Part shown: positions 1-47,750 of the stretch, piece after piece
Numbering within the stretch: the first letter of the stretch is position 1
Layout of the letters: every line of letters begins with the position of its first letter
Source: Bolinopsis microptera
Taxonomy: Eukaryota; Ctenophora; Tentaculata; Lobata; Bolinopsidae
NCBI RefSeq assembly: GCF_026151205.1
Contig: NC_087075.1
Span: forward strand, 2,452,359 to 2,516,358
Reading direction: 5' to 3'
Length of the DNA: 64,000 nt
Notes under the pieces: generated by a model
The model's database searches: none
Told to the model about the DNA's origin: nothing
The model's input: only the letters and a program-made list of their open reading frames with translations
Translations under genes and position numbers: made by a program

Positions 1-1014
1 GCCTTGTATCTTGTATCACCGGGAGTGACCTAGCCTTGTATCTTGTATCACCGGGAGTGACCTAGCCTTGTATCTTGTATCACCGGGAGTGACCTAGCCT
101 TGTATCTTGTATCACCGGGAGTGACCTAGCCTTGTAGCTTGTATCACCGGGAGTGACCTAGCCTTGTATCTTGTATCACCGGGAGTGACCTAGCCTTGTA
201 TCTTGTATCACCGGGAGTGACCTAGCCTTGTATCTTGTATCACCGGGAGTGACCTAGCCTTGTATCTTGTATCACCGGGAGTGACCTAGCCTTGTATCTT
301 GTATCACCGGGAGTGACCTAGCCTTGTATCTTGTATCACCGGGAGTGACCTAGCCTTGTATCTTGTATCACCGGGAGTGACCTAGCCTTGTATCTTGTAT
401 CACCGGGAGTGACCTAGCCTTGTATCTTGTATCACCGGGAGTGACCTAGCCTTGTATCTTGTATCACCGGGAGTGACCTAGCCTTGTATCTTGTATCACC
501 GGGAGTGACCTAGCCTTGTATCTTGTATCACCGGGAGTGACCTAGCCTTGTATCTTGTATCACCGGGAGTGACCTAGCCTTGTATCTTGTATCACCGGGA
601 GTGACCTAGCCTTGTATCTTGTATCACCGGGAGTGACCTAGCCTTGTAGCTTGTATCACCGGGAGTGACCTAGCCTTGTATCTTGTATCACCGGGAGTGA
701 CCTAGCCTTGTATCTTGTATCACCGGGAGTGACCTAGCCTTGTATCTTGTATCACCGGGAGTGACCTAGCCTTGTAGCTTGTATCACCGGGAGTGACCTA
801 GCCTTGTAGCTTGTATCACCGGGAGTGACCTAGCCTTGTATCTTGTATCACCGGGAGTGACCTAGCCTTGTATCTTGTATCACCGGGAGTGACCTAGCCT
901 TGTATCTTGTATCACCGGGAGTGACCTAGCCTTGTATCTTGTATCACCGGGAGTGACCTAGCCTTGTATCTTGTATCACCGGGAGTGACCTAGCCTTGTA
1001 GCTTGTATCACGTA
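1..1014. repeat. 33-bp tandem array (about 30 copies, open at left edge)
   Basis: A near-perfect unit starts GCCTTGTATCTTGTATCACC and continues GGGAGTGACCTAG. The only common variant is TATCTT/TAGCTT. It lies in the intron after exon J. The last partial copy joins TAAAAAGCCTGC and then the exon J donor. The array continues past position 1, so its true size is unknown. Confidence 0.97.
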
Positions 1015-1031: not shown

Positions 1032-1194
1032 ATAAACAGCTTTAACCCCAGCAGCATCACACAGCGCCTTGAAGAGGTTAGCATAGCCTGCACACACACT
1101 GGTACGGTTAGCTAGGGTACCCTCTGCCGTTACATCTGGGTACCGCATAGCTAGGTAGTCCGCTACTGCATAGCTTATATTCTCCGTTATCCAT
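1032..1194 (-). CDS. Exon J: transglutaminase-like catalytic Cys exon
   Basis: The acceptor is CACATCCCAG|A and the donor GTTTAT|GTGAGT. It has 1 nt plus 54 codons: WITENISYAVADYLAMRYPD, VTAEGTLANRTSVCAGYANL, FKALCDAAGVKAVY. The Cys in SVCAGYANLF (codon at 1094-1092) is the expected nucleophile. Later exons lie beyond the 33-bp array at 1-1014, outside the window. Confidence 0.92.
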
Positions 1195-7100: not shown

Positions 7101-10100
7101 GGAGATGTTAAAACTACTACAGAACTCCTCACTAGTATCCAGAACTACCACCTCCCCACACGTGATGCCCATATAAGGAGATGTTAAAACTACTACAGAA
7201 CTCCTCACTAGTATCCAGAACTACCACATCCCCCCCCACGTGATGCCCATATAAGGAGATGTTAAAACTACTACAGAACTCCTCACTAGTATCCAGAACT
7301 ACAACATCCCCACACGTGATGTCCATATAAGGAGATGTTAAAACTACTACAGAACTCCTCACTAGTATCCAGAACTACCACCTCCCCACACGTGATGCCC
7401 ATATAAGGAGATGCTAAAACTACTACAGAACTCCTCACTAGTATCCAGAACTACCACCTCCCCACACGTGATGCCCATATAAGGAGATGCTAAAACTACT
7501 ACAGAACTCCTCACTAGTATCCAGAACTACCACATCCCCCCCACGTGATGCCCATATAAGGAGATGTTAAAACTACTACAGAACTCCTCACTAGTATCCA
7601 GAACTACCACCTCCCCCCACGTGATGCCCATATAAGGAGATGTTAAAACTACTACAGAACTCCTCACTAGTATCCAGAACTACCACCTCCCCCCACGTGA
7701 TGCCCATATAAGGAGATGCTAAAACTACTACAGAACTCCTCACTAGTATCCAGAACTACCACATCCCCCCCCCACGTGATGCCCATATAAGGAGATGTTA
7801 AAACTACTACAGAACTCCTCACTAGTATCCAGAACTACAACATCCCCACACGTGATGTCCATATAAGGAGATGTTAAAACTACTACAGAACTCCTCACTA
7901 GTATCCAGAACTACCACCTCCCCACACGTGATGCCCATATAAGGAGATGCTAAAACTACTACAGAACTCCTCACTAGTATCCAGAACTACCACCTCCCCA
8001 CACGTGATGCCCATATAAGGAGATGCTAAAACTACTACAGAACTCCTCACTAGTATCCAGAACTACCACATCCCCCCCACGTGATGCCCATATAAGGAGA
8101 TGTTAAAACTACTACAGAACTCCTCACTAGTATCCAGAACTACCACCTCCCCCCACGTGATGCCCATATAAGGAGATGTTAAAACTACTACAGAACTCCT
8201 CACTAGTATCCAGAACTACCACCTCCCCCCACGTGATGCCCATATAAGGAGATGTTAAAACTACTACAGAACTCCTCACTAGTATCCAGAACTACCACCT
8301 CCCCCCACGTGATGCCCATATAAGGAGATGTTAAAACTACTACAGAACTCCTCACTAGTATCCAGAACTACCACCTCCCCCCACGTGATGCCCATATAAG
8401 GAGATGCTAAAACTACTACAGAACTCCTCACTAGTATCCAGAACTACCACCTCCCCCCACGTGATGCCCATATAAGGAGATGTTAAAACTACTACAGAAC
8501 TCCCCACTAGTATCCAGAACTACCACCTCCCCACACGTGATGCCCATATAAGGAAATGTTAAAACTACTACAGAACTCCTCACTAGTATCCAGAACTACC
8601 ACCTCCCCACACGTGATGCCCATATAAGGAAATGTTAAAACTACTACAGAACTCCTCACTAGTATCCAGAACTACCACCTCCCCACACGTGATGCCCATA
8701 TAAGGAAATGTTAAAACTACTACAGAACTCCTCACTAGTATCCAGAACTACCACCTCCCCACACGTGATGCCCATATAAGGAGATGTTAAAACTACTACA
8801 GAACTCCTCACCTTTTGAACTTATGAGTACCGTCGTTACCTCCAGGCACCATCTTATCTCCCTCCATTCCCACCCACACTCCTTCAGCTATTTCAGTAGG
8901 TCCTACATATCTGTTAGATAAAGATAAAGATTATAGAATGAAAAAGCTTTTCAACTTTTTATAATCAGTTTTGAAGGACCCTTATAATTCTTCCATTATA
9001 AACTCTCTTAAAGTTCTGTAATAACCTGACAGTTCCAGTGTATCCTAAAGTAATAACCTGACAGTTCCAGTGTATCCTAAAGTAATAACCTGACAGTTCC
9101 AGTGTATCCTTAAGTAATAACCTGACAGTTCCAGTGTATCAAGTAATAACCTGACAGTTCCAGTGTATCCTAAAGTAATAACCTGACAGTTCCAGTGTAT
9201 CAAGTAATAACCTGACAGTTCCAGTGTATCCTAAAGTAATAACCTGACAGTTCCAGTGTATCCTAAAGTAGCGACCCTGTCTCCCGCCTGGAACGGACAC
9301 GTTGTGTCGTCGCTCTTCCTACAAAGGAGTGTTAGTTTTATTTGTTCAATACTGAAGTCTATTTCTAATAGTTGATGATCTTGAGATCTGTGATATTGAT
9401 AACTTTTGGTGGAATGTAATTTTTTGGTGGAATGTAATTTCACTTTCAAAAGATTGCTATACTCTAATCTTGCCAACAATATAATATTTGAATTAAGGAT
9501 AGATTGTATGTACTTAGAGATGCTGATAACAAGCGCTCTCAGCAGCCTATCAAAGTCTTTGAGCGCATGCTCGAAGTCCTCCAGCGCTGTGAGCAGTGCC
9601 TCCTCCCCTATCTCCATGTAAGTTCCCAGTTCAGCCAGGTTTATCAGTGCTAACAACTCTGTCGTCTGGCGGGAGCCAGAGAGGGTCAAGTTGTGTCATT
9701 TGTAATGATTTTATCAGAAGGATTATAGTGTGTTGTTTAATCAAGATGTCAGGCTTTTGACGATATGTTATTCGATAAAAATGAACTCCTGTGTTATTTC
9801 TCTAGAGGATATTAGAGCGGTGTAATAAAACACTTACCACACTGTAATAAAACACTTACCACGCTGTAATAAAACACTTACCACACTGTAATAAAACACT
9901 TACCACACTGTAATAAAACACTTACCACACTGTAATAAAGCACTTACCACGCTGTAATAAAACACTTAACACGCTGTAATAAAGCACTTACCACACTGTA
10001 ATAAAACACTTACCACGCTGTAATAAAACACTTACCACGCTGTAATAAAACACTTACCACACTGTAATAAAACACTTACCACGCTGTAATAAAACACTTA

Positions 10101-13100
10101 CCACACTGTAATAAAACACTTACCACACTGTAATAAAACACTTACCACACTGTAATAAAACACTTACCACACTGTAATAAAACACTTACCACACTGTAAT
10201 AAAACACTTACCACACTGTAATAAAACACTTACCACACTGTAATAAAACACTTACCACACTGTAATAAAACACTTACCACGCTGTAATAAAACACTTACC
10301 ACACTGTAATAAAACACTTACCACACTGTAATAAAACACTTACCACACTGTAATAAAACACTTACCACACTGTAATAAAACACTTACCACACTGTAATAA
10401 AACACTTACCACACTGTAATAAAACACTTACCACACTGTAATAAAACACTTACCACACTGTAATAAAACACTTACCACGCTGTAATAAAACACTTACCAC
10501 ACTGTAATAAAACACTTACCACGCTGTAATAAAACACTTACCACACTGTAATAAAACACTTACCACACTGTAATAAAACACTTACCACACTGTAATAAAA
10601 CACTTACCACACTGTAATAAAACACTTACCACGCTGTAATAAAACACTTACCACACTGTAATAAAACACTTACCACACTGTAATAAAACACTTACCACAC
10701 TGTAATAAAACACTTACCACACTGTAATAAAACACTTACCACACTGTAATAAAACACTTACCACACTGTAATAAAACACTTACCACACTGTAATAAAACA
10801 CTTACCACACTGTAATAAAACACTTACCACACTGTAATAAAACACTTACCACACTGTAATAAAACACTTACCACACTGTGCTAAAACACTTACCACACTG
10901 TAATAAAACACTTACCACACTGTAATAAAACACTTACCACACTGTAATAAAACACTTACCACGCTGTAATAAAACACTTACCACACTGTAATAAAACACT
11001 TACCACGCTGTAATAAAACACTTACCACGCTGTAATAAAACACTTACCACACTGTAATAAAACACTTACCACACTGTAATAAAACACTTACCACACTGTA
11101 ATAAAACACTTACCACACTGTAATAAAACACTTACCACACTGTAATAAAACACTTACCACGCTGTAATAAAGCACTTACCACACTGTAATAAAACACTTA
11201 CCACACTGTAATAAAACACTTACCACGCTGTAATAAAACACTTACCACGCTGTAATAAAACACTTACCAAACTGTGCTAAAACACTTACCACGCTGTAAT
11301 AAAACACTTACCACACTGTAATAAAACACTTACCACACTGTAATAAAACACTTACCACACTGTAATAAAACACTTACCACACTGTAATAAAACACTTACC
11401 ACACTGTAATAAAACACTTACCACACTGTAATAAAACACTTACCACACTGTAATAAAACACTTACCACGCTGTAATAAAACACTTACCACGCTGTAATAA
11501 AACACTTACCACACTGTAATAAAACACTTACCACACTGTAATAAAACACTTACCACACTGTAATAAAACACTTACCACACTGTAATAAAACACTTACCAC
11601 GCTGTAATAAAACACTTACCACACTGTAATAAAACACTTACCACACTGTAATAAAACACTTACCACACTGTAATAAAACACTTACCACACTGTAATAAAA
11701 CACTTACCACACTGTAATAAAACACTTACCACACTGTAATAAAACACTTACCACACTGTAATAAAACACTTACCACACTGTAATAAAACACTTACCACAC
11801 TGTAATAAAACACTTACCACGCTGTAATAAAACACTTACCACACTGTAATAAAACACTTACCACACTGTAATAAAACACTTACCACACTGTAATAAAACA
11901 CTTACCACACTGTAATAAAACACTTACCACACTGTAATAAAACACTTACCACACTGTAATAAAACACTTACCACACTGTAATAAAACACTTACCACGCTG
12001 TAATAAAACACTTACCACACTGTAATAAAACACTTACCACACTGTAATAAAACACTTACCACACTGTAATAAAACACTTACCACACTGTAATAAAACACT
12101 TACCACACTGTAATAAAACACTTACCACGCTGTAATAAAACACTTACCACGCTGTAATAAAGCACTTACCACGCTGTAATAAAACACTTACCACGCTGTA
12201 ATAAAACACTTACCACACTGTAATAAAACACTTACCACGCTGTAATAAAACACTTACCACACTGTAATAAAACACTTACCACACTGTAATAAAACACTGA
12301 CCACACTGTAATAAAACACTTACCACACTGTAATAAAACACTTACCACACTGTAATAAAACACTTACCACACTGTAATAAAACACTTACCACACTGTAAT
12401 AAAACACTTACCACACTGTAATAAAACACTTACCACACTGTAATAAAACACTTACCACACTGTAATAAAACACTTACCACGCTGTAATAAAACACTTACC
12501 ACGCTGTAATAAAACACTTACCACACTGTAATAAAACACTTACCACACTGTAATAAAACACTTACCACGCTGTAATAAAACACTTACCACACTGTAATAA
12601 AACACTTAACACACTGTAATAAAACACTTACCACACTGTAATAAAACACTTACCACGCTGTAATAAAACACTTACCACGCTGTAATAAAACACTTACCAA
12701 ACTGTAATAAAACACTTACCAAACTGTAATAAAACACTTACCACACTGTAATAAAACACTTACCACGCTGTAATAAAACACTTACCACGCTGTAATAAAA
12801 CACTTACCAAACTGTAATAAAACACTTACCACGCTGTAATAAAACACTTACCAAACTGTAATAAAACACTTACCAAACTGTAATAAAACACTTACCACGC
12901 TGTAATAAAACACTTACAAGACTGTAATAAAACACTTACCACACTGTAATAAAACACTTACCACACTGTAATAAAACACTTACCACGCTGTAATAAAACA
13001 CTTACAAGACTGTAATAAAACACTTACCACACTGTAATAAAACACTTACCACGCTGTAATAAAACACTTACCACGCTGTAATAAAACACTTACCAAGACT

Positions 13101-16100
13101 GTAATAAAACACTTACCACACTGTAATAAAACACTTACCACGCTGTAATAAAACACTTACCACGCTGTAATAAAACACTTACCACGCTGTAATAAAACAC
13201 TTACCAAACTGTAATAAAACACTTACCAAACTGTAATAAAACACTTACCACACTGTAATAAAACACTTACCACACTGTAATAAAACACTTACCACGCTGT
13301 AATAAAACACTTACCACACTGTAATAAAACACTTACCACACTGTAATAAAACACTTACCACACTGTGCTAAAACACTTACCACACTGTAATAAAACACTT
13401 ACCAAACTGTAATAAAACACTTACCACACTGTAATAAAACACTTACCACACTGTAATAAAACACTTACCAAACTGTAATAAAACACTTACCAAACTGTAA
13501 TAAAACACTTACCACGCTGTAATAAAACACTTACCAAACTGTGCTAAAACACTTACCAAACTGTAATAAAACACTTACCACGCTGTAATAAAACACTTAC
13601 CACACTGTAATAAAACACTTACCACACTGTAATAAAACACTTACCACGCTGTAATAAAACACTTACCACACTGTAATAAAACACTTACCACACTGTAATA
13701 AAACACTTACCAAACTGTGCTAAAACACTTACCACACTGTAATAAAACACTTACCACGCTGTAATAAAACACTTACCACACTGTAATAAAACACTTACAA
13801 GACTGTAATAAAACACTTACCACACTGTAATAAAACACTTACCACGCTGTAATAAAACACTTACCACGCTGTAATAAAACACTTACCACGCTGTAATAAA
13901 ACACTTACCACGCTGTAATAAAACACTTACCACGCTGTAATAAAACACTTACCACACTGTAATAAAACACTTACCACGCTGTAATAAAACACTTACCACA
14001 CTGTAATAAAACACTTACCACACTGTAATAAAACACTTACCAAACTGTGCTAAAACACTTACCACACTGTAATAAAACACTTACCACACTGTAATAAAAC
14101 ACTTACCACGCTGTAATAAAACACTTACCACGCTGTAATAAAACACTTACCACACTGTAATAAAACACTTACCACGCTGTAATAAAACACTTACCACACT
14201 GTAATAAAACACTTACCACACTGTAATAAAACACTTACCAAACTGTGCTAAAACACTTACCACACTGTAATAAAACACTTACCAAACTGTAATAAAACAC
14301 TTACCACACTGTGCTAAAGCACTTACCACGCTGTAATAAAACACTTACCACACTGTAATAAAACACTTACCACACTGTGCTAAAACACTTACCACACTGT
14401 AATAAAACACTTACCACGCTGTGCTAAAACACTTACCACACTGTAATAAAACACTTACCAAACTGTGCTAAAACACTTACCACACTGTAATAAAACACTT
14501 ACCACACTGTGCTAAAACACTTACCACACTGTAATAAAACACTTACCACGCTGTGCTAAAACACTTACCACACTGTAATAAAACACTTACCACACTGTGC
14601 TAAAACACTTACCACACTGTAATAAAACACTTACCACACTGTGCTAAAACACTTACCACACTGTAATAAAACACTTACCAAACTGTGCTAAAACACTTAC
14701 CACACTGTAATAAAACACTTACCAAACTGTAATAAAACACTTACCACACTGTAATAAAACACTTACCACACTGTGCTAAAGCACTTACCACGCTGTAATA
14801 AAACACTTACCACACTGTAATAAAACACTTACCACACTGTGCTAAAACACTTACCACACTGTAATAAAACACTTACCACGCTGTAATAAAACACTTACCA
14901 AACTGTGCTAAAACACTTACCAAACTGTGCTAAAACACTTACCACGCTGTAATAAAACACTTACCACACTGTAATAAAACACTTACCACACTGTAATAAA
15001 GCACTTACCACACTGTGCTAAAACACTTACCACACTGTAATAAAACACTTACCACACTGTAATAAAACACTTACCACGCTGTAATAAAACACTTACCACA
15101 CTGTAATAAAACACTTACCAAACTGTAATAAAACACTTACCACGCTGTAATAAAACACTTACCACACTGTAATAAAACACTTACCACACTGTAATAAAAC
15201 ACTTACCAAACTGTGCTAAAACACTTACCACACTGTAATAAAACACTTACCACGCTGTAATAAAACACTTACCACACTGTAATAAAACACTTACAAGACT
15301 GTAATAAAACACTTACCACACTGTAATAAAACACTTACCACGCTGTAATAAAACACTTACCACACTGTAATAAAACACTTACCAAACTGTGCTAAAACAC
15401 TTACCACACTGTAATAAAACACTTACCAAACTGTAATAAAACACTTACCACGCTGTAATAAAACACTTACCACACTGTAATAAAGCACTTACCACACTGT
15501 AATAAAACACTTACCACGCTGTAATAAAACACTTACCACGCTGTAATAAAACACTTACCACGCTGTAATAAAACACTTACCACACTGTAATAAAACACTT
15601 ACCAAACTGTGCTAAAACACTTACCACACTGTAATAAAACACTTACCACGCTGTAATAAAACACTTACCAAACTGTAATAAAACACTTACCACGCTGTAA
15701 TAAAACAATTACCAAACTGTAATAAAACACTTACCACACTGTAATAAAACACTTACCAAACTGTAATAAAGCACTTACCACACTGTAATAAAGCACTTAC
15801 CAAACTGTAATAAAACACTTACCACGCTGTAATAAAACACTTACCAAACTGTAATAAAACACTTACCACACTGTAATAAAGCACTTACCACACTGTAATA
15901 AAACACTTACCACGCTGTAATAAAACACTTACCACGCTGTAATAAAACACTTACCACGCTGTAATAAAACACTTACCACGCTGTAATAAAACACTTACCA
16001 AACTGTAATAAAACACTTACCACACTGTAATAAAACACTTACCACACTGTAATAAAACACTTACCACGCTGTAATAAAACACTTACCACGCTGTAATAAA

Positions 16101-19100
16101 ACACTTACCACACTGTAATAAAACACTTACCAAACTGTAATAAAACACTTACCACGCTGTAATAAAACACTTACCAAACTGTAATAAAACACTTACCACA
16201 CTGTAATAAAACACTTACCAAACTGTAATAAAACACTTACCACGCTGTAATAAAACACTTACCACACTGTAATAAAGCACTTACCACACTGTAATAAAAC
16301 ACTTACCACGCTGTAATAAAACACTTACCACGCTGTAATAAAACACTTACCAAACTGTAATAAAACACTTACCAAACTGTAATAAAACACTTACCACACT
16401 GTAATAAAGCACTTACCACACTGTAATAAAACACTTACCACACTGTAATAAAACACTTACCACGCTGTAATAAAACACTTACCACACTGTAATAAAACAC
16501 TTACCACACTGTAATAAAACACTTACCACGCTGTAATAAAACACTTACCAAACTGTAATAAAACACTTACCACACTGTAATAAAACACTTACCAAACTGT
16601 AATAAAAAACTTACCACGCTGTAATAAAACACTTACCACACTGTAATAAAGCACTTACCACACTGTAATAAAACACTTACCACGCTGTAATAAAACACTT
16701 ACCACGCTGTAATAAAACACTTACCAAACTGTAATAAAACACTTACCAAACTGTAATAAAACACTTAACACGCTGTAATAAAACACTTACCACACTGTAA
16801 TAAAACACTTACCACACTGTAATAAAACACTTACCACGCTGTAATAAAACACTTACCAAACTGTGCTAAAACACTTACCACACTGTAATAAAACACTTAC
16901 CACACTGTAATAAAACACTTACCACGCTGTAATAAAACACTTACCAAACTGTGCTAAAACACTTACCACGCTGTAATAAAACACTTACCACGCTGTAATA
17001 AAACACTAACCACTCTGTAATAAAACACTTACCACACTGTAATAAAACACTTACCAAACTGTAATAAAACACTTACCTCACTGTAATAAAACACTTACCA
17101 CACTGTAATAAAGCACTTACCACGCTGTAATAAAACACTTACCACACTGTAATAAAACACTTACCAAACTGTAATAAAACACTTACCACGCTGTAATAAA
17201 ACACTTACCACGCTGTAATAAAACACTTACCACGCTGTAATAAAACACTTACCAAACTGTGCTAAAACACTTACCAAACTGTGCTAAAACACTTACCACA
17301 CTGTAATAAAACACTTACCACACTGTAATAAAACACTTACCACGCTGTAATAAAACACTTACCACACTGTAATAAAACACTTACCACACTGTAATAAAAC
17401 ACTTACCAAACTGTGCTAAAACACTTACCACACTGTAATAAAACACTTACCACACTGTAATAAAACACTTACCACACTGTAATAAAACACTTACCACACT
17501 GTAATAAAACACTTACCACGCTGTAATAAAACACTTACCACACTGTAATAAAACACTTACCACACTGTAATAAAACACTTACCACGCTGTAATAAAACAC
17601 TTACCACACTGTAATAAAACACTTACCACGCTGTAATAAAACACTTACCACGCTGTAATAAAACACTTACCACACTGTAATAAAACACTTACCACGCTGT
17701 AATAAAACACTTACCACACTGTAATAAAACACTTACCACACTGTAATAAAACACTTACCACGCTGTAATAAAACACTTACCACACTGTAATAAAACACTT
17801 ACCACACTGTAATAAAGCACTTACCACGCTGTAATAAAACACTTACCACACTGTAATAAAACACTTACCACGCTGTAATAAAACACTTACCAAACTGTGC
17901 TAAAACACTTACCACACTGTAATAAAACACTTACCACACTGTAATAAAACACTTACCACACTGTAATAAAACACTTACCACACTGTAATAAAACACTTAC
18001 CACGCTGTAATAAAACACTTACCACACTGTAATAAAACACTTACCACACTGTAATAAAACACTTACCACGCTGTAATAAAACACTTACCACACTGTAATA
18101 AAACACTTACCACGCTGTAATAAAACACTTACCAAACTGTGCTAAAACACTTACCACACTGTAATAAAACACTTACCACACTGTAATAAAACACTTACCA
18201 CACTGTAATAAAACACTTACCACACTGTAATAAAACACTTACCACGCTGTAATAAAACACTTACCACACTGTAATAAAACACTTACCACACTGTAATAAA
18301 ACACTTACCACGCTGTAATAAAACACTTACCACACTGTAATAAAACACTTACCACACTGTAATAAAACACTTACCACGCTGTAATAAAACACTTACCAAA
18401 CTGTGCTAAAACACTTACCACACTGTAATAAAACACTTACCACACTGTAATAAAACACTTACCACGCTGTAATAAAACACTTACCACACTGTAATAAAAC
18501 ACTTATCACACTGTAATAAAGCACTTACCACACTGTAATAAAACACTTACCACACTGTAATAAAACACTTACCACGCTGTAATAAAACACTTACCACGCT
18601 GTAATAAAACACTTACCAAACTGTGCTAAAACACTTACCACGCTGTAATAAAACACTTACCAAACTGTAATAAAACACTTACCACGCTGTAATAAAACAC
18701 TTATCAAACTGTGCTAAAACACTTACCACGCTGTAATAAAACACTTACCAAACTGTAATAAAACACTTACCACACTGTAATAAAACACTTACCACGCTGT
18801 AATAAAACACTTACCAAACTGTGCTAAAACACTTACCACACTGTAATAAAACACTTACCAAACTGTAATAAAACACTTACCACACTGTAATAAAGCACTT
18901 ACCACACTGTAATAAAACACTTACCACGCTGTAATAAAACACTTACCACACTGTAATAAAACACTTACCAAACTGTGCTAAAACACTTACCACGCTGTAA
19001 TAAAACACTTACCACACTGTAATAAAACACTTACCAAACTGTAATAAAACACTTACCACACTGTAATAAAGCACTTACCACACTGTAATAAAACACTTAC

Positions 19101-22100
19101 CAAACTGTGCTAAAACACTAACCACACTGTGCTAAAGCACTTACCACACTGTAATAAAACACTTACCAAACTGTAATAAAACACTTACCACACTGTTATA
19201 AAACACTTACCACGCTGTAATAAAACACTTACCACACTGTAATAAAACACTTACCACACTGTAATAAAACACTTACCAAACTGTAATAAAACACTTACCA
19301 AACTGTGCTAAAACACTTACCACGCTGTAATAAAACACTTACCAAACTGTAATAAAACACTTACCACACTGTAATAAAACACTTACCACACTGTAATAAA
19401 ACACTTACCACACTGTAATAAAACACTTACCACACTGTAATAAAACACTTACCAAACTGTGCTAAAACACTAACCACACTGTAATAAAACACTTACCAAA
19501 CTGTAATAAAACACTTACCAAACTGTGCTAAAACACTTACCACACTGTAATAAAACACTTACCACACTGTAATAAAGCACTTACCACACTGTAATAAAAC
19601 ACTTACCACACTGTAATAAAACACTTACCACACTGTAATAAAACACTTACCTCACTGTAATAAAACACTTACCACGCTGTAATAAAGCACTTACCACACT
19701 GTAATAAAACACTTACCACACTGTAATAAAACACTTACCACGCTGTAATAAAACACTTACCACGCTGTAATAAAACACTTACCAAACTGTGCTAAAACAC
19801 TAACCACGCTGTAATAAAACACTTACCACGCTGTAATAAAACACTTACCACACTGTAATAAAACACTTACCACGCTGTAATAAAACACTTACCACACTGT
19901 AATAAAACACTTACCACACTGTAATAAAACACTTACCAAACTGTAATAAAACACTTACCAAACTGTGCTAAAACACTTACCACACTGTAATAAAACACTT
20001 ACCACGCTGTAATAAAACACTTACCACGCTGTAATAAAACACTTTCCACACTGTAATAAAACACTTACCACACTGTAATAAAACACTTACCACACTGTAA
20101 TAAAACACTTACCACACTGTAATAAAACACTTACCAAACTGTAATAAAACACTTACCACACTGTAATAAAACACTTACCACACTGTAATAAAACACTTAC
20201 CACACTGTAATAAAACACTTACCACACTGTAATAAAACACTTACCAAACTGTGCTAAAACACTTACCACACTGTAATAAAACACTTACCACACTGTAATA
20301 AAACACTTACCACACTGTAATAAAACACTTACCACACTGTAATAAAACACTTACCACACTGTAATAAAACACTTACCACGCTGTAATAAAACACTTACCA
20401 CGCTGTAATAAAACACTTACCACACTGTAATAAAACACTTACCACGCTTTAATAAAACACTTACCACACTGTAATAAAACACTTACCACACTGTAATAAA
20501 ACACTTACCACACTGTAATAAAACACTTACCACACTGTAATAAAACACTTACCACACTGTAATAAAACACTGACCAAACTGTAATAAAACACTTACCAAA
20601 CTGTACTAAAACACTTACCACACTGTAATAAAACACTTACCACACTGTAATAAAACACTTACCACACTGTAATAAAACACTTACCACACTGTAATAAAAC
20701 ACTTACCACACTGTAATAAAACACTTACCACACTGTAATAAAACACTTACCACACTGTAATAAAACACTTACCAAACTGTGCTAAAACACTTACCACACT
20801 GTAATAAAACACTTACCACACTGTAATAAAACACTTACCAAACTGTAATAAAACACTTACCACGCTGTAATAAAACACTTACCACGCTGTAATAAAACAC
20901 TTACCACACTGTAATAAAACACTTACCAGACTGTGCTAAAACACTTACCACACTGTAATAAAACACTTACCACACTGTAATAAAACACTTACCACACTGT
21001 AATAAAACACTTACCAAACTGTGCTAAAACACTAACCACACTGTGCTAAAACACTTACCACGCTGTAATGAAACACTTACCACACTGTAATAAAACACTT
21101 ACCACACTGTAATAAAACACTTACCAAACTGTGCTAAAACACTTACCACACTGTAATAAAACACTTACCACACTGTAATAAAACACTTACCACACTGTAA
21201 TAAAACACTTACCACACTGTAATAAAACACTTACCACACTGTAATAAAACACTTACCACACTGTAATAAAACACTTACCACACTGTAATAAAACACTTAC
21301 CACACTGTAATAAAACACTTACCACACTGTAATAAAACACTTACCACACTGTAATAAAACACTTACCACACTGTAATAAAACACTTACCACACTGTAATA
21401 AAACACTTACCAAACTGTGCTAAAACACTTACCACGCTGTAATAAAACACTTACCACACTGTAATAAAACACTTACCACACTGTAATAAAACACTTACCA
21501 CACTGTAATAAAACACTTACCACACTGTAATAAAACACTTACCACACTGTAATAAAACACTTACCACGCTGTAATAAAACACTTACCACACTGTAATAAA
21601 ACACTTACCACACTGTAATAAAACACTTACCACGCTGTAATAAAACACTTACCACACTGTAATAAAACACTTACCACGCTGTAATAAAACACTTACCACA
21701 CTGTAATAAAACACTTACCACACTGTAATAAAACACTTACCACACTGTAATAAAACACTTACCACACTGTAATAAAACACTTACCACACTGTAATAAAAC
21801 ACTTACCACACTGTAATAAAACACTTACCACACTGTAATAAAACACTTACCACGCTGTAATAAAACACTTACCACACTGTAATAAAACACTTACCACACT
21901 GTAATAAAACACTTACCACACTGTAATAAAACACTTACCACACTGTAATAAAACACTTACCACACTGTAATAAAACACTTACCACACTGTAATAAAACAC
22001 TTACCACACTGTAATAAAACACTTACCACACTGTAATAAAACACTTACCACACTGTAATAAAACACTTACCACACTGTAATAAAACACTTACCACGCTGT

Positions 22101-25100
22101 AATAAAACACTTACCACACTGTAATAAAACACTTACCACGCTGTAATAAAACACTTACCACGCTGTAATAAAACACTTACCACACTGTAATAAAACACTT
22201 ACCACGCTGTAATAAAACACTTACCACACTGTAATAAAACACTTACCACACTGTAATAAAACACTTACCACACTGTAATAAAACACTTACCACACTGTAA
22301 TAAAACACTTACCACACTGTAATAAAACACTTACCACACTGTAATAAAACACTTACCACGCTGTAATAAAACACTTACCACACTGTAATAAAACACTTAC
22401 CACACTGTAATAAAACACTTACCACGCTGTAATAAAACACTTACCACACTGTAATAAAACACTTACCACACTGTAATAAAACACTTACCACACTGTAATA
22501 AAACACTTACCACACTGTAATAAAACACTTACCACACTGTAATAAAACACTTACCACACTGTAATAAAACACTTACCACGCTGTAATAAAACACTTACCA
22601 CACTGTAATAAAACACTTACCACACTGTAATAAAACACTTACCACACTGTAATAAAACACTTACCACACTGTAATAAAACACTTACCACACTGTAATAAA
22701 ACACTTACCACACTGTAATAAAACACTTACCACGCTGTAATAAAACACTTACCACACTGTAATAAAACACTTACCACACTGTAATAAAACACTTACCACG
22801 CTGTAATAAAACACTTACCACACTGTAATAAAACACTTACCACACTGTAATAAAACACTTACCACACTGTAATAAAACACTTACCACGCTGTAATAAAAC
22901 ACTTACCACACTGTAATAAAACACTTACCACGCTGTAATAAAACACTTACCACACTGTAATAAAACACTTACCACACTGTAATAAAACACTTACCACACT
23001 GTAATAAAACACTTACCACACTGTAATAAAACACTTACCACACTGTAATAAAACACTTACCACACTGTAATAAAACACTTACCACACTGTAATAAAACAC
23101 TTACCACACTGTAATAAAACACTTACCACACTGTAATAAAACACTTACCACACTGTAATAAAACACTTACCACACTGTAATAAAACACTTACCACACTGT
23201 AATAAAACACTTACCACACTGTAATAAAACACTTACCACACTGTAATAAAACACTTACCACGCTGTAATAAAACACTTACCACACTGTAATAAAACACTT
23301 ACCACACTGTAATAAAACACTTACCACACTGTAATAAAACACTTACCACACTGTAATAAAACACTTACCACACTGTAATAAAACACTTACCACACTGTAA
23401 TAAAACACTTACCACACTGTAATAAAACACTTACCACGCTGTAATAAAACACTTACCACACTGTAATAAAACACTTACCACACTGTAATAAAACACTTAC
23501 CACACTGTAATAAAACACTTACCACACTGTAATAAAACACTTACCACGCTGTAATAAAACACTTACCACACTGTAATAAAACACTTACCAAACTGTAATA
23601 AAACACTTACCACGCTGTAATAAAACACTTACCACGCTGTAATAAAACACTTACCACACTGTAATAAAACACTTACCACACTGTAATAAAACACTTACCA
23701 CACTGTAATAAAACACTTACCACACTGTAATAAAACACTTACCACACTGTAATAAAACACTTACCACACTGTAATAAAACACTTACCACACTGTAATAAA
23801 ACACTTACCACACTGTAATAAAACACTTACCACGCTGTAATAAAACACTTACCACACTGTAATAAAACACTTACCACACTGTAATAAAACACTTACCACA
23901 CTGTAATAAAACACTTACCACACTGTAATAAAACACTTACCACACTGTAATAAAACACTTACCACACTGTAATAAAACACTTACCACACTGTAATAAAAC
24001 ACTTACCACACTGTAATAAAACACTTACCACACTGTAATAAAACACTTACCACACTGTAATAAAACACTTACCACACTGTAATAAAACACTTACCACACT
24101 GTAATAAAACACTTACCACACTGTAATAAAACACTTACCACACTGTAATAAAACACTTACCACACTGTAATAAAACACTTACCACACTGTAATAAAACAC
24201 TTACCACGCTGTAATAAAACACTTACCACACTGTAATAAAACACTTACCACGCTGTAATAAAACACTTACCACACTGTAATAAAACACTTACCACACTGT
24301 AATAAAACACTTACCACACTGTAATAAAACACTTACCACACTGTAATAAAACACTTACCACGCTGTAATAAAACACTTACCACACTGTAATAAAACACTT
24401 ACCACACTGTAATAAAACACTTACCACACTGTAATAAAACACTTACCACACTGTAATAAAACACTTACCACACTGTAATAAAACACTTACCACGCTGTAA
24501 TAAAACACTTACCACGCTGTAATAAAACACTTACCACACTGTAATAAAACACTTACCACACTGTAATAAAACACTTACCACACTGTAATAAAACACTTAC
24601 CACACTGTAATAAAACACTTACCACACTGTAATAAAACACTTACCACACTGTAATAAAACACTTACCACACTGTAATAAAACACTTACCACACTGTAATA
24701 AAACACTTACCACACTGTAATAAAACACTTACCACACTGTAATAAAACACTTACCACACTGTAATAAAACACTTACCACGCTGTAATAAAACACTTACCA
24801 CACTGTAATAAAACACTTACCACACTGTAATAAAACACTTACCACACTGTAATAAAACACTTACCACACTGTAATAAAACACTTACCACACTGTAATAAA
24901 ACACTTACCACGCTGTAATAAAACACTTACCACACTGTAATAAAACACTTACCACACTGTAATAAAACACTTACCACGCTGTAATAAAACACTTACCACA
25001 CTGTAATAAAACACTTACCACGCTGTAATAAAACACTTACCACACTGTAATAAAACACTTACCACGCTGTAATAAAACACTTACCACACTGTAATAAAAC

Positions 25101-28100
25101 ACTTACCACGCTGTAATAAAACACTTACCACACTGTAATAAAACACTTACCACGCTGTAATAAAACACTTACCACACTGTAATAAAACACTTACCACACT
25201 GTAATAAAACACTTACCACACTGTAATAAAACACTTACCACGCTGTAATAAAACACTTACCACACTGTAATAAAACACTTACCACACTGTAATAAAACAC
25301 TTACCACGCTGTAATAAAACACTTACCACACTGTAATAAAACACTTACCACGCTGTAATAAAACACTTACCACACTGTAATAAAACACTTACCACGCTGT
25401 AATAAAACACTTACCACACTGTAATAAAACACTTACCACGCTGTAATAAAACACTTACCACACTGTAATAAAACACTTACCACACTGTAATAAAACACTT
25501 ACCACGCTGTAATAAAACACTTACCACGCTGTAATAAAACACTTACCACGCTGTAATAAAACACTTACCACACTGTAATAAAACACTTACCACACTGTAA
25601 TAAAACACTTACCACACTGTAATAAAACACTTACCACACTGTAATAAAACACTTACCACACTGTAATAAAACACTTACCACGCTGTAATAAAACACTTAC
25701 CACGCTGTAATAAAACACTTACCACGCTGTAATAAAACACTTACCACACTGTAATAAAACACTTACCACACTGTAATAAAACACTTACCACGCTGTAATA
25801 AAACACTTACCACGCTGTAATAAAACACTTACCACACTGTAATAAAACACTTACCACGCTGTAATAAAACACTTACCACACTGTAATAAAACACTTACCA
25901 CGCTGTAATAAAACACTTACCACGCTGTAATAAAACACTTACCACGCTGTAATAAAACACTTACCACACTGTAATAAAGCACTTACCACGCTGTAATAAA
26001 ACACTTACCACGCTGTAATAAAACACTTACCACACTGTAATAAAACACTTACCACACTGTAATAAAACACTTACCACACTGTAATAAAACACTTACCACG
26101 CTGTAATAAAACACTTACCACACTGTAATAAAACACTTACCACACTGTAATAAAACACTTACCACACTGTAATAAAACACTTACCACACTGTAATAAAAC
26201 ACTTACCACACTGTAATAAAACACTTACCACGCTGTAATAAAACACTTACCACGCTGTAATAAAACACTTACCACACTGTAATAAAACACTTACCACACT
26301 GTAATAAAACACTTACCACACTGTAATAAAACACTTACCACACTGTAATAAAACACTTACCACACTGTAATAAAACACTTACCACACTGTAATAAAACAC
26401 TTACCACACTGTAATAAAACACTTACCACACTGTAATAAAACACTTACCACACTGTAATAAAACACTTACCACGCTGTAATAAAACACTTACCACACTGT
26501 AATAAAACACTTACCACGCTGTAATAAAACACTTACCACACTGTAATAAAACACTTACCACACTGTAATAAAACACTTACCACACTGTAATAAAACACTT
26601 ACCACGCTGTAATAAAACACTTACCACACTGTAATAAAACACTTACCACACTGTAATAAAACACTTACCACGCTGTAATAAAACACTTACCACACTGTAA
26701 TAAAACACTTACCACGCTGTAATAAAACACTTACCACACTGTAATAAAACACTTACCACGCTGTAATAAAACACTTACCACACTGTAATAAAACACTTAC
26801 CACGCTGTAATAAAACACTTACCACACTGTAATAAAACACTTACCACGCTGTAATAAAACACTTACCACACTGTAATAAAACACTTACCACACTGTAATA
26901 AAACACTTACCACACTGTAATAAAACACTTACCACGCTGTAATAAAACACTTACCACGCTGTAATAAAACACTTACCACACTGTAATAAAACACTTACCA
27001 CGCTGTAATAAAACACTTACCACACTGTAATAAAACACTTACCACGCTGTAATAAAACACTTACCACACTGTAATAAAACACTTACCACGCTGTAATAAA
27101 ACACTTACCACACTGTAATAAAACACTTACCACGCTGTAATAAAACACTTACCACACTGTAATAAAACACTTACCACACTGTAATAAAACACTTACCACA
27201 CTGTAATAAAACACTTACCACGCTGTAATAAAACACTTACCACGCTGTAATAAAACACTTACCACACTGTAATAAAACACTTACCACACTGTAATAAAAC
27301 ACTTACCACACTGTAATAAAACACTTACCACACTGTAATAAAACACTTACCACGCTGTAATAAAACACTTACCACACTGTACTAAAACACTTACCACGCT
27401 GTAATAAAACACTTACCACGACTGTAATAAAACACTTACCACACTGTAATAAAACACTTACCACACTGTAATAAAACACTTACCACACTGTAATAAAACA
27501 CTTACCACACTGTAATAAAACACTTACCACACTGTAATAAAACACTTACCAAACTGTGCTAAAACACTTACCACACTGTAATAAAACACTTACCAAACTG
27601 TAATAAAACACTTACCACACTGTAATAAAACACTTACCACACTGTAATAAAACACTTACCACACTGTAATAAAGCACTTACCACACTGTAATAAAACACT
27701 TACCACACTGTAATAAAACACTTACCACGCTGTAATAAAACACTTACCACACTGTAATAAAACACTTACCACGCTGTAATAAAACACTTACCACACTGTA
27801 ATAAAACACTTACCACGCTGTAATAAAACACTTACCACACTGTAATAAAACACTTACCACGCTGTAATAAAACACTTACCACACTGTAATAAAACACTTA
27901 CCACACTGTAATAAAACACTTACCACGCTGTAATAAAACACTTACCACGCTGTAATAAAACACTTACCACGCTGTAATAAAACACTTACCACACTGTAAT
28001 AAAACACTTACCACACTGTAATAAAACACTTACCACACTGTAATAAAACACTTGCCACACTGTAATAAAACACTTACCACACTGTAATAAAGCACTTACC

Positions 28101-31100
28101 ACGCTGTAATAAAACACTTACCACGCTGTAATAAAACACTTACCACGCTGTAATAAAACACTTACCACACTGTAATAAAACACTTACCACGCTGTAATAA
28201 AGCACTTACCACGCTGTAATAAAACACTTACCACGCTGTAATAAAACACTTACCACGCTGTAATAAAGCACTTACCACGCTGTAATAAAACACTTACCAC
28301 ACTGTAATAAAGCACTTACCACGCTGTAATAAAACACTTACCACGCTGTAATAAAACACTTACCACGCTGTAATAAAACACTTACCACACTGTAATAAAG
28401 CACTTACCACGCTGTAATAAAACACTTACCACGCTGTAATAAAACACTTACCAAACTGTAATAAAACACTTACCACACTGTAATAAAACACTTACCACAC
28501 TGTAATAAAACACTTACCACGCTGTAATAAAACACTTACCACACTGTAATAAAACACTTACCACACTGTAATAAAACACTTACCAAACTGTAATAAAACA
28601 CTTACCAAACTGTAATAAAACACTTACCACACTGTAATAAAACACTTACCACGCTGTAATAAAACACTTACCACGCTGTAATAAAACACTTACCACACTG
28701 TAATAAAACACTTACCACACTGTAATAAAACAATTACCACACTGTAATAAAACACTTACCACACTGTAATAAAACACTTACCACACTGTAATAAAACACT
28801 TACCACACTGTAATAAAACACTTACCACACTGTAATAAAACACTTACCACACTGTAATAAAACACTTACCACACTGTAATAAAACACTTACCACGCTGTA
28901 ATAAAACACTTACCACACTGTGATAAAACACTTACCACGCTGTAATAAAACACTTACCACACTGTAATAAAACACTTACCACACTGTAATAAAGCACTTA
29001 CCACACTGTAATAAAACACTTACCACGCTGTAATAAAACACTTACCACACTGTAATAAAACACTTACCACACTGTAATAAAACACTTACCACGCTGTAAT
29101 AAAACACTTACCACACTGTAATAAAACACTTACCACGCTGTAATAAAACACTTACCACACTGTAATAAAACACTTACCACGCTGTAATAAAACACTTACC
29201 ACACTGTAATAAAACACTTACCACGCTGTAATAAAACACTTACCACACTGTGATAAAACACTTACCACGCTGTAATAAAACACTTACCACACTGTAATAA
29301 AACACTTACCACACTGTAATAAAACACTTACCACACTGTAATAAAACACTTACCACGCTGTAATAAAACACTTACCACGCTGTAATAAAACACTTACCAC
29401 ACTGTAATAAAACACTTACCACGCTGTAATAAAACACTTACCACACTGTAATAAAACAATTACCACGCTGTAATAAAACACTTACCACACTGTAATAAAA
29501 CACTTACCACGCTGTAATAAAACACTTACCACACTGTAATAAAACACTTACCACGCTGTAATAAAACACTTACCACACTGTAATAAAACACTTACCACAC
29601 TGTAATAAAGCACTTACCACGCTGTAATAAAACACTTACCACGCTGTAATAAAACACTTACCACGCTGTAATAAAACACTTACCACACTGTAATAAAACA
29701 CTTACCACACTGTAATAAAGCACTTACCACACTGTAATAAAACACTTACCACACTGTAATAAAACACTTACCACGCTGTAATAAAACACTTACCAAACTG
29801 TGCTAAAACACTTACCACGCTGTAATAAAACACTTACCACGATGTAATAAAACACTTACCACACTGTAATAAAACACTTACCACACTGTAATAAAACACT
29901 TACCACACTGTAATAAAACACATACCACACTGTAATAAAACACTTACCAAACTGTAATAAAACACTTACCAAACTGTGCTAAAACACTTACCACACTGTA
30001 ATAAAACACTTACCAAACTGTAATAAAACACTTACCACACTGTAATAAAACACTTACCACACTGTAATAAAACACTTACCACACTGTAATAAAGCACTTA
30101 CCACACTGTAATAAAACACTTACCACACTGTAATAAAACACTTACCACACTGTAATAAAACACTTACCACACTGTAATAAAACACTTACCACACTGTAAT
30201 AAAGCACTTACCACACTGTAATAAAACACTTACCACACTGTAATAAAACACTTACCACGCTGTAATAAAACACTTACCAAACTGTGCTAAAACACTTACC
30301 ACACTGTAATAAAACACTTACCACACTGTGCTAAAACACTTACCACGCTGTAATAAAACACTTACCACACTGTAATAAAACACTTACCACACTGTAATAA
30401 AACACTTACCACACTGTAATAAAACACTTACCACACTGTAATAAAACACTTACCACACTGTAATAAAACACTTACCACACTGTAATAAAACACTTACCAC
30501 ACTGTAATAAAACACTTACCACACTGTAATAAAACACTTACCACACTGTGCTAAAACACTTACCACGCTGTAATAAAACACTTACCACACTGTAATAAAA
30601 CACTTACCACACTGTAATAAAACACTTACCACGCTGTAATAAAACACTTACCACACTGTAATAAAACACTTACCACACTGTAATAAAACACTTACCACAC
30701 TGTAATAAAACACTTACCACACTGTAATAAAACACTTACCACGCTGTAATAAAACACTTACCACGCTGTAATAAAACACTTACCACACTGTAATAAAACA
30801 CTTACCACACTGTAATAAAACACTTACCACACTGTAATAAAACACATACCACACTGTAATAAAACACTTACCAAACTGTGCTAAAACACTTACCACGCTG
30901 TAATAAAACACTTACCACGCTGTAATAAAACACTTACCACACTGTAATAAAACACTTACCACACTGTAATAAAACACTTACCACACTGTAATAAAACACT
31001 TACCACACTGTAATAAAACACTTACCACACTGTAATAAAACACTTACCACACTGTAATAAAACACTTACCACACTGTAATAAAACACTTACCACACTGTA

Positions 31101-34100
31101 ATAAAACACTTACCACACTGTAATAAAACACTTACCACACTGTAATAAAACACTTACCACGCTGTATGAAACACTTACCACACTGTAATAAAACACTTAC
31201 CACACTGTAATAAAACACTTACCACACTGTAATAAAACACTTACCACACTGTAATAAAACACTTACCACACTGTAATAAAACACTTACCACACTGTAATA
31301 AAACACTTATCACACTGTAATAAAACACTTACCACGCTGTAATAAAACACTTACCACACTGTAATAAAACACTTACCACACTGTAATAAAACACTTACCA
31401 CACTGTAATAAAACACTTACCACACTGTAATAAAACACTTACCACGCTGTAATAAAACACTTACCAAACTGTAATAAAACACTTACCACACTGTAATAAA
31501 ACACTTACCACACTGTAATAAAACACTTACCACACTGTAATAAAACACTTACCACGCTGTAATAAAACACTTACCACACTGTAATAAAACACTTACCACG
31601 CTGTAATAAAACACTTACCACACTGTAATAAAACACTTACCACACTGTAATAAAACACTTACCACGCTGTAATAAAACACTTACCACACTGTAATAAAAC
31701 ACTTACCACACTGTAATAAAACACTTACCACACTGTAATAAAACACTTACCACGCTGTAATAAAACACTTACCACGCTGTAATAAAACACTTACCACGCT
31801 GTAATAAAACACTTACCACACTGTAATAAAACACTTACCACACTGTAATAAAACACTTACCACACTGTAATAAAACACTTACCACACTGTGATAAAACAC
31901 TTACCACACTGTAATAAAACACTTACCACACTGTCATATGCGTCTCGGAGTAGGGAGGGGTTCTTACCCGCTATCTTAATACCCTTCACAAAGGAGGAAA
32001 CCTGGGGGAAATAGTGAATATTATAAAGGAGGAAACCTGGGGAAATAGAGAATATTATAAAGGAGGAAACCTGGGGAAATAGTGAATATTATAAAGGAGG
32101 AAACCTGGGGAAATAGTGAATATTATAAAGGAGGAAACCTGGGGAAATAGAGAATATTATAAAGGAGGAAACCTGGGGAAATAGTGAATATTATAAAGGA
32201 GGAAACCTGGGGAAATAGAGAATATTATAAAGGAGGAAACCTGGGGAAATAGTGAATATTATAAAGGAGGAAACCTGGGGAAATAGAGAATATTATAAAG
32301 GAGGAAACCTGGGGAAATAGAGAATATTATAAAGGAGGAAACCTGGGGGAAAATAGTGAATATTACAGAGGAGGAAACCTGGGAGGAAATAGTGAATATT
32401 ACAGAGGAGGAAACCTAGGAGAAAATAGTGAATATTACAAAAGAGGAAACCTGGGGGAAAATAGTGAATATTACAAAGGAGGAAACCTGGGGGAAATAGT
32501 GAATATTATAAAGGAGGAAACCTGGGGGAAAATAGTGAATATTACAGAGGAGGAAACCTGGGGGAAAATAGTGAATTTTACAGAGGAGGAAACCTAGGAG
32601 GAAATAGTGAATATCACAAAGGAGGAAACCTGGGGGAAAATAGTGAATATTACAGAGGAGGAAACCTGGGAGGAAATAGTGAATATTATAAAGGAGGAAA
32701 CCTAGGAGGAAATAGTGAATATTACAAAGGAGGAAACCTAGGAGAAAATAGTGAATATAACAAAGGAGGAAACCTGGGAGAAAATAGTGAATATTACAAA
32801 GGAGGAAACCTAGGAGGAAATAGTGAATATCACAAAGGAGGAAACCTGGAGGAAATAGTGAATATTACAAAAGAGAAAACCTAGGAGAAAATAGTGAATA
32901 TTACAAAAGAGGAAACCTAGGAGGAAATAGTGAATATAACAAAGGAGGAAACCTGGGAGGTTTAATGAAATAGTGACCTAAATCCATTCGATTATGAAAG
33001 TGAGTAATTTAACTGTGTCAAATCAATCTAAGGGAAACTTAGACAGCAGTATGGTGGACCATGAGTATCACTAATTTTTTTAGGGGGTGGGACATATTGA
33101 CCCATGCCCCATCAGTATCAATGATATTTTTAGGGGGTGGGACATACCTGTCCCATGCCCCATCAGTATCAAAATATTTTTTTCAGAGGGTGGGCCGCCC
33201 CATCAGTATCAAGAAGAAAACATTGGTGGGATTTCGTGTACCATGCCCCATGAGTATCAATAAAAATTTTATGGGGTGGGAAATACCTGTCCCATGCCCC
33301 ATCAGTATCAAAATATTTTTTCAGAGGGTGGGCCGCCCCATCAGTATCAAGAAGAAAACATTGGTGGGATTTCGTGTACCATGCCCCATGAGTATCAATA
33401 AAAATTTTATGGGGTGGGAAATACCTGTCCCATGCCCCATCAGTATCAAAATATTTTTTTCAGAGGGTGGGCCGCCCCATCAGTATCAAGAAGAAAACAT
33501 TGGTGGGATTTCGTGTACCATGCCCCATGAGTATCAATCAAATTTTTGTGGGGTGGGACATACCTGACCCATGCCCCATCAGTATCAAAAACATTTTCAG
33601 AGGGTGGGCCGCCCCATGAGTATCAAAATTTCTTTTTAACGGGTGGGCCGCCCCATGAGTATCAAAATTTCTTTTTAACGGGTGGGACATACCTGACCCA
33701 TGCCCCATCAGTATCAACATTTCTTTTTAACGGGTGGGCCGCCCCATGAGTATCAAAATTTCTTTTTAACGGGTGGGCCGCCCCATGAGTATCAAAATTT
33801 CTTTTTAACGGGTGGGACATACCTGACCCATGCCCCATCAGTATCAAAAACATTTTCAGAGGGTGGGCCGCCCCATGAGTATCAAAATTTCTTTTTAACG
33901 GGTGGGCCGCCCCATGAGTATCAAAATTTCTTTTTAACGGGTGGGACATACTTGACCCATGCCCCATCAGTATCAAAATTTCATTTTAACGGGTGGGCCG
34001 CCCCATGAGTATCAAAATTTCTTTTTAACGGGTGGGCCGCCCCATGAGTATCAAAATTTCTTTTTAACGGGTGGGCCGCCCCATGAGTATCAAAATTTCT

Positions 34101-47465: not shown

Positions 47466-47510
47466 GACTTGACCGGAGATAAACTCATAACGTTTAACTA
47501 AGATTTGACA

Positions 47511-47750
47511 ATGAAGCTGATCCTACTTGTATGTATTACACTTGCTGTGGTTTCCGGACTGAGGATGGAGAAACGTGCCCCTAAACCTTGCAAGGGGAAC
47601 CGTTACTGTCCTATGAGATGTGTTAAGAACAGTGTGCCCTGTGGTGGGGCTCAACTGCAGACAGAGGAAGTGAAGGAGAAGAGAGCCCCCTGCCCAGCAG
47701 GGGAACGCTGGTGTTATGGCAGATGCCACGATGGCAAGTCATGTTTTTAA
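47511..47750 (+). CDS. Secreted precursor with two KR-flanked four-Cys peptide modules
   Basis: The ORF encodes 79 residues from the ATG at 47511. A signal peptide (MKLILLVCITLAVVSG) and short LRMEKR spacer are followed by module 1 (C-x5-C-x3-C-x6-C), a linker ending EVKEKR, and module 2 (C-x6-C-x3-C-x5-C-F, stop). Each module begins AP after a dibasic KR, so furin-type cleavage would release two related peptides of about 25-30 and 21 residues, each with two disulfides. This is the layout of a neuropeptide, antimicrobial or venom-type precursor; I cannot assign a family. There is no intron in the coding part. Flanking signals are a TATA box at 47457 and an AATAAA at 47991. A longer start is not supported because the codons upstream of the ATG are not ATG. 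Confidence 0.75.
   Translation: MKLILLVCITLAVVSGLRMEKRAPKPCKGNRYCPMRCVKNSVPCGGAQLQTEEVKEKRAPCPAGERWCYGRCHDGKSCF

What the first reader, a model, noticed from the sequence alone, without database searches (positions are those of the whole stretch)
9818..31927. A 22-kb intron made of about 1000 intron-like units
On the minus (gene) strand each 22-bp unit reads TGTG|GTAAGTGTTTTATTACAG: a consensus 5' splice site and a complete 3' splice site 18 nt apart. The real exon C donor (GACAGTGTG|GTAAGTG) is simply the terminal unit. The intron therefore offers about 1000 equivalent donors and 1000 acceptors. Any long pairing leaves a clean junction, and alternative pairings add only multiples of 22 nt. 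This could buffer splicing, drive recursive or stepwise intron removal, or sequester U1/U2. I know of no described satellite with this property.
Basis: partly seen in the sequence, partly recalled or inferred. Interest (0 to 1): 0.92.

Follow-up and report, generated by a model that had tools for sequence, protein, structure and literature searches.

The report
Splice-junction repeat array filling an intron
In what appears to be a comb jelly, the end of one exon and the start of its intron have been copied about a thousand times in a row; this is a giant case of a repeat type known from lancelets, and a natural test of how cells pick one splice site among many identical ones.

Summary
The array is real: about 1005 units of 22 bp (9821-31938); 980 of 1004 full units keep both GTAAGT and CAG. 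It starts inside exon C of a CAP-Gly/transglutaminase-core gene on the minus strand, modelled with an open frame across 12 exons.

The unit duplicates the exon/intron junction: 8 exon bases (ACAGTGTG) plus 14 intron bases. Its "3' splice site" is a hybrid of intron TTTTATT and exon ACAG. Function is not supported: 10 of 18 rare variant types hit the splice motifs, and of 13 donors tested only the first keeps the frame.

It is not alone. In 8 of this gene's 11 modelled introns an array touches or crosses a splice site; two sampled genes show the same. This is the "mirage" minisatellite described in amphioxus. The genome's size and chromosomes match the comb jelly Bolinopsis microptera.

The scale, and perhaps the phylum, are new; the kind is not. 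Most likely: junction-spanning duplication, neutral expansion, splicing from the exon-proximal donor. No RNA was examined.

The parts
9821..31938 (-). 22-bp array, about 1005 copies; each unit = last 8 bases of exon C + first 14 intron bases; covers the donor of exon C and nearly the whole intron C-D
   Evidence: TRF; unit survey; boundary
31927..32001 (-). exon C (VSSFVKGIKIAGKNPSLLRDAYDSV), donor GTG|GTAAGT
   Evidence: gene model
9514..9665 (-). exon D (TTELLALINLAELG...), acceptor CGCCAG|ACG; its donor is weak in the model
39662..39757 (-). exon A with the first ATG used; true 5' end not established
39474..39566 (-). exon B; its donor is weak in the model
31988..32957 (-). 36-bp array crossing the acceptor of exon C by about 14 bases; CAG|GTTTCCTCC in 20 units, TAG in 5 (about 27 units)
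9244..9318 (-). exon E, start of the CAP-Gly domain
9018..9270 (-). 32-bp array crossing the donor of exon E by 27 bases; CTGTCAG|GTTATTA in 8 of 8 units
8812..8910 (-). exon F (CAP-Gly domain)
3869..8811 (-). 76-bp array starting exactly at the donor of exon F; GTGAGGAG 64 times in 65 units
3266..3374 (-). exon G
3150..3262 (-). 21-bp array starting 3 bases inside the intron after exon G
2862..2945 (-). 6-bp array ending 7 bases before the acceptor of exon H (not counted as touching)
2775..2854 (-). exon H
2520..2652 (-). 43-bp array ending exactly at the acceptor of exon I
2400..2519 (-). exon I
1192..2257 (-). 38-bp array crossing the acceptor of exon J by 3 bases; internal copies read CCCAG 8 times and CCCAA 20 times
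1032..1194 (-). exon J (transglutaminase-like core)
1..1011 (-). 32-bp array starting 20 bases after the donor of exon J, running on into L009 (not counted as touching)

Best explanation
The array is a 'mirage': a minisatellite seeded by a tandem duplication of 22 bp spanning the exon C/intron junction (8 exon + 14 intron bases; read directly from the sequence), then expanded to about 1000 copies by ordinary tandem-repeat turnover such as slippage or unequal exchange (inferred). Because the extra copies lie downstream of an intact donor they fall in the intron and are tolerated. Each copy inherits the donor; the acceptor arises where intron TTTTATT meets exon ACAG. Splicing uses the exon-proximal donor and the exon D acceptor, and internal sites are silent or their products are lost as frameshifted RNA (inferred). 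The internal sites persist because the array is homogeneous, not because selection keeps them.
For: Unit = exon end + intron start. Splice motifs not better kept than other bases (10 of 18 rare variant types in the core). Only donor 1 of 13 tested keeps the frame. Exons F-K are constrained between the two gene copies: 13 synonymous and 2 non-synonymous codon differences of 223, so the gene appears to be in use. In 8 of 11 modelled introns of this gene an array touches or crosses a splice site, and also in RPC1 (4 arrays) and SLC30 (2 arrays). Sister arrays differ in copy number between the two gene copies, e.g. 76 bp 65 against about 118, 38 bp 28 against 12, 21 bp 5 against 18, which shows turnover. 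A null in which seeds may span junctions explains most of the contacts. Amphioxus mirages are reported not to disturb splicing (PMC3087553, passages).
Against: No RNA was examined. Internal sites are as strong as the real ones, so proximity or exon definition must be assumed. The four clonal common variants all lie outside the core, which would fit weak constraint. Junction contacts exceed the spanning null overall (13 of 28 against 7.1, p=0.004), so a junction preference is not ruled out. Donor motifs are not enriched in 27 sampled array units (4 observed, 3.2-6.2 expected).
Confidence: 0.78

Rival explanations
1. Stepwise removal: internal donors and acceptors pair with each other (nested splicing) or with exon C (recursive splicing), so the 22-kb intron is shortened in steps before the final joining.
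For: 980 of 1004 units hold both motifs, as strong as the real sites by a generic matrix. Pairings wholly inside the array would not change the mRNA (inference).
Against: Joining exon C to one internal acceptor adds 4 bases and gives a stop; three such steps would restore the frame but were not tested. Motifs are not better kept than other bases. The nearest acceptor to any donor is 18 nt away, so only longer pairings are plausible (general knowledge).
Confidence: 0.1
2. The transcribed array acts by binding U1 (and perhaps U2), as a sponge or to protect the long transcript from early ending.
For: About 980 strong donor motifs in one transcript.
Against: No conservation of the motifs above the rest of the unit; other junction arrays in the same gene have different units, and one (38 bp) has mostly lost its acceptor AG, 20 of 28 units, so no common binding role is seen.
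Confidence: 0.04
3. The array is largely an assembly artefact: a short mirage inflated or homogenised by long-read consensus and gap closing.
For: The published B. microptera assembly used wtdbg with gap closing, if that is this assembly. A partial near-identical copy next door (15 of 669 bases different) could be a second haplotype assembled in tandem.
Against: 43 distinct unit types in a patchy order and many different junction arrays in several genes are hard to make by assembly error.
Confidence: 0.04
4. Exons C and D are not joined; the array lies outside the functional transcript or the gene ends there.
For: No transcript was examined; the modelled donors of exons B and D are weak (-0.5 and -0.3).
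Against: C and D join in phase 0 into one open frame of 405 codons.
Confidence: 0.04

Closest known systems
'Mirage' minisatellites of amphioxus (Adh3, globins BflGb6/BflGb9, TnC; PGBD5 similar)
   Same: Tandem repeats whose unit spans an exon-intron boundary, at 5' or 3' splice sites, many units with AG/GT signals, copy number variable (PMC3087553 and PMC3902484, passages).
   Different: Far more copies (about 1005; the globin case read has 3-6), both a donor and a complete hybrid acceptor in a 22-bp unit, several junctions of one gene affected, and a genome that matches a comb jelly rather than a lancelet.
Dual-specific splice sites in tandem repeats (human UBC, VCX3A; PMC10809524, passages)
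   Same: Splice signals multiplied by tandem repeats.
   Different: There one AGGT serves as both sites and coding repeats are spliced variably; the unit here has no AGGT, with 4 bases between AG and GT.
Recursive splice sites (ratchet points)
   Same: 3' and 5' splice motifs close together inside an intron.
   Different: Ratchet points are AG|GT and leave no bases (definition as given in PMC10809524); here each step would leave 4 bases.
Intron gain by tandem duplication and human boundary repeats (PMC2812944 passages; PMC4974935, PMC2891723 listings only)
   Same: Tandem duplication near splice signals changes gene structure.
   Different: Those make new introns or alternative transcripts; here an existing-looking intron seems to have grown in length.

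Membership tests
Mirage minisatellite | Tandem repeat unit contains an exon-intron boundary | tested here: met
   Unit = ACAGTGTG (exon C end) + GTAAGTGTTTTATT (intron start)
Mirage minisatellite | The array abuts or crosses the authentic splice site | tested here: met
   TRF array reaches 31938, 12 bases into exon C (31927-32001)
Mirage minisatellite | Regular splicing is not disturbed | not testable with these tools
   No RNA data; frame analysis only
Mirage minisatellite | Copy number is unstable | tested here: inconclusive
   Sister arrays differ between two gene copies; the 22-bp array was not seen in the second copy, so it could not be compared
Recursive splice site | AG|GT ratchet leaving no bases | tested here: not met
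   4 bases (TGTG/CGTG) lie between AG and GT in the common units; inclusion of TGTG gives a stop
Dual-specific splice site array | AGGT core used as both donor and acceptor | tested here: not met
   The consensus unit read in tandem holds no AGGT
Intron gain by tandem duplication | Intron absent from the gene before the duplication | not tested
   No orthologue from a related species was at hand; 155 bp of non-array intron remain at the D side, which suggests an older short intron

The most novel reading that the evidence does not exclude
In this lineage junction-seeded minisatellites are a main source of intron length, and the 22-kb intron is dismantled by nested splicing among its roughly 1000 internal donor/acceptor pairs before the exon-proximal donor is joined to exon D. 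The array would then be an intron made of repeated spliceable steps, invisible in the mRNA.
Probability: 0.1. Interest if true: 0.85.

Novelty: new member of a known kind. Interest (0 to 1): 0.5.

Why it matters
It extends mirage minisatellites from lancelets (the only animals in which my searches found them named) to a genome that matches a comb jelly, at a copy number far above the examples I read, and with several different cases in one gene. One exon faces about 1000 near-equal donors of which, among those tested, only the first is productive, so public RNA reads could measure how strictly the spliceosome prefers the exon-proximal site. It also illustrates how an intron may grow from a few hundred bases to 22 kb without breaking the gene.

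Tried and rejected
Motif enrichment in array units: 27 of 111 non-redundant arrays from a 200-kb sample (chosen by period 10-100, at least 3 copies, at least 60 bp). Donors (score 6 or more): 4 observed, 6.2 expected from shuffles, 3.2 from non-array sequence. Acceptors (7 or more): 5 observed, 2.1 and 2.5 expected; no significance test was made.

A hot spot at junctions: strongly suggested if arrays are confined to introns, much weaker once seeds may span the junction. In RPC1, 4 of 7 arrays touch a junction (p=0.087) and 7 of 7 lie within 25 nt (p=0.00015), but 25 nt was chosen after seeing the data, and a long intron holding a nested gene, one intron with an unresolved donor and the last introns were left out.

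Higher-order repeats in the 22-bp array: only weak, short blocks. Protein homologue search: 35 hits, all by the transglutaminase-core part as far as their domains show, no help with the organism. Organism: a Hormiphora spliced-leader pattern with up to 3 mismatches gave 0 matches; let-7 gave 0, but the tool's controls did not ring either. An exon near B1 19.5 kb that I first took by eye for XPR1 matched RPC1 weakly (E 0.1), and neighbouring reading frames fit the RPC1 order as I recall it. A blind test on chaperonin genes (PF00118) could not be run because the genome search did not complete.
Full report
What is there. TRF reports one array at 9821-31938, period 22, 1005.3 copies. A wrap-around tiling gives 1006 units, 558 of them TGTGGTAAGTGTTTTATTACAG on the minus strand, with 43 distinct unit strings. 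Of 1004 full units, 982 keep GTAAGT, 1002 CAG and 980 both. All 477 exact matches of a 42-base probe in the 264.65-Mb genome lie in the window.

The host gene. I built a 12-exon model on the minus strand (A-J in the window, K-L in L009) from GT/AG signals and open frames. It gives an open frame of 405 codons, with CAP-Gly (4.5e-18) and transglutaminase-core (1.6e-16) domains in Pfam and dynactin-1 CAP-Gly as the best solved-structure match (1.8e-12). Likeness to KY/hillarin proteins is recalled, not tested. Exon C ends at 31927 and exon D starts at 9665, both in phase 0. The gene's true ends were not established. A second, partial, near-identical copy lies downstream (L010, L011). In exons F-K it differs at 15 of 669 bases, with 13 synonymous and 2 non-synonymous codon differences of 223, so these exons look constrained. 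Its exon D region looks broken by eye, and exons A-C were not seen in the stretch I read. Whether it is a paralogue or a second haplotype I cannot tell.

Origin of the unit. The 22 bases ACAGTGTG+GTAAGTGTTTTATT are the last 8 bases of exon C and the first 14 of the intron. The acceptor-like TTTTATTACAG forms only where two copies meet. This follows from the sequence.

Are the internal sites kept? Five substitutions are common (positions 1, 2, 12, 17, 18; 17G and 18C have nearly equal counts and appear together in the commonest variant units, so four events) and all lie outside the core. Rare variants (12 copies or fewer) comprise 18 types, 10 of them in the 9 core positions of 22, and 39 occurrences, 22 in the core (p=0.23). 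With a generic recalled matrix, internal donor and acceptor score 9.5 and 6.5, equal to the real C donor and D acceptor, so sequence strength alone does not explain silence.

Consequences of using them. With donor 1 the frame is open through the 405 codons. Donors 2 to 13, the only others tested, give a stop at codon index 99-103 (exon C ends at 85), and one 4-nt microexon gives a stop at 97. Among those tested, only exon-proximal use is productive. Pairings entirely inside the array would not change the mRNA and remain possible (inference).

Not one intron but many. In this gene 8 of 11 modelled introns have an array within 3 nt of, or across, a splice site: acceptor of C (36 bp), donors of C (22), E (32), F (76) and G (21), acceptors of I (43), J (38) and L (57). 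That is 8 of 22 junctions against 0.53 expected for random placement within introns (0 of 200,000 simulations). A-B has no array; in D-E the nearest gap is 73 nt and in J-K 20 nt. In other arrays of the gene the internal sites are kept in part: 25 of about 27 units (36 bp), 8 of 8 (E), 64 of 65 (F), 42 of 44 (L), but only 8 of 28 at J and 1 of 12 at J of the second copy.

Other genes. In four 50-kb samples from other chromosomes, 19% of bases lie in tandem arrays of any period. An RPC1 gene there (one exon matches human RPC1, 1.4e-61; the intron model leaned on splice scores and on the human sequence as I recall it) has 3 of 20 junctions in ten modelled introns touched (p=0.006; by introns 2 of 10, p=0.064). 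An SLC30 gene (3.2e-31) has 2 of 4 (p=0.0075); it was noticed through its arrays, so it is not blind. A further RPC1 exon has an array crossing its donor by 36 nt. Two 9-bp arrays in a kelch-like gene (named by eye) lie away from junctions. Donor motifs were not enriched across 27 sampled units; acceptors were somewhat more frequent than expected.

Hot spot or neutral? If a duplicated segment may lie anywhere that overlaps the intron, junction-spanning seeds are expected often, since the non-array intron is short (107-214 bp in six of the eight touched introns). Under this null 13 of 28 arrays touch a junction against 7.1 expected (p=0.004): 8 of 20 against 3.7 in this gene (p=0.011) and 5 of 8 against 3.4 in the other two (p=0.17). 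Strict crossing is 9 against 6.3 (p=0.13). Neutral duplication explains most; a modest preference is open.

Organism. Thirteen contigs of 15.2-26.2 Mb make up 258.07 of 264.65 Mb (the sum is mine), and the fourteenth is 0.2 Mb. A table in PMC11797021 (passage) gives Bolinopsis microptera 265 Mb, 13 chromosomes, largest 26.2 Mb, though with 346 scaffolds against 232 contigs here. I infer this species; it is not proven by sequence, and the spliced-leader test was negative.

Literature. [quoted passage not shown] PMC3902484 (passages) adds TnC and PGBD5. The original Adh paper was not read. PMC10809524 (passages) covers dual-specific sites in tandem repeats and PMC2812944 (passages) human boundary repeats. 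The capped listings of searches showed no title or abstract on such arrays in comb jellies, and the passages I saw of three comb jelly genome papers do not mention them; that is not proof of absence.

Verdict. A real, very large member of a known kind, probably in a phylum where I found no report of it. The functional reading is not supported; RNA would settle it.

Noticed in passing
window 33059-34272 and 36686-39221: Two blocks of tandem repeats that read as reverse complements of each other flank 34.3-36.6 kb inside intron B-C; it looks like a large foldback-type inverted-repeat element.
   Followed up: no
window 45688-46209: Neighbouring reading frames with an ISXO2/IS1595-like transposase domain (Pfam PF12762, 2.9e-9), flanked by 11-bp arrays.
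   Followed up: partly
window 53637-61467: Two long overlapping open frames (1406 and 1219 codons) that look by eye like a non-LTR retrotransposon; no domain search was made.
   Followed up: no
window 49174-52795: 21-bp array of 172.5 copies; because the period is a multiple of 3 it leaves long spurious open frames (up to 1215 codons).
   Followed up: no
window 47502-47750: Small open frame (82 codons) that looks by eye like a secreted cysteine-rich peptide.
   Followed up: no
L010 and L011 (contig C4, just below the window): Partial near-identical copy of the host gene carrying the same arrays at other copy numbers (76 bp about 118 against 65, 38 bp 12 against 28, 21 bp 18 against 5); paralogue or second haplotype.
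   Followed up: partly
window 1192-2257 and L011 7868-8323: In the 38-bp acceptor array most internal copies have lost the acceptor AG (CCCAA 20 of 28 and 11 of 12) while the terminal, real one keeps it; decay or selection against cryptic acceptors.
   Followed up: partly
G000 C1, C3, C4: Several dynein heavy chain matches lie in open frames of 2539-3703 codons, so some dynein genes here look nearly intronless.
   Followed up: no
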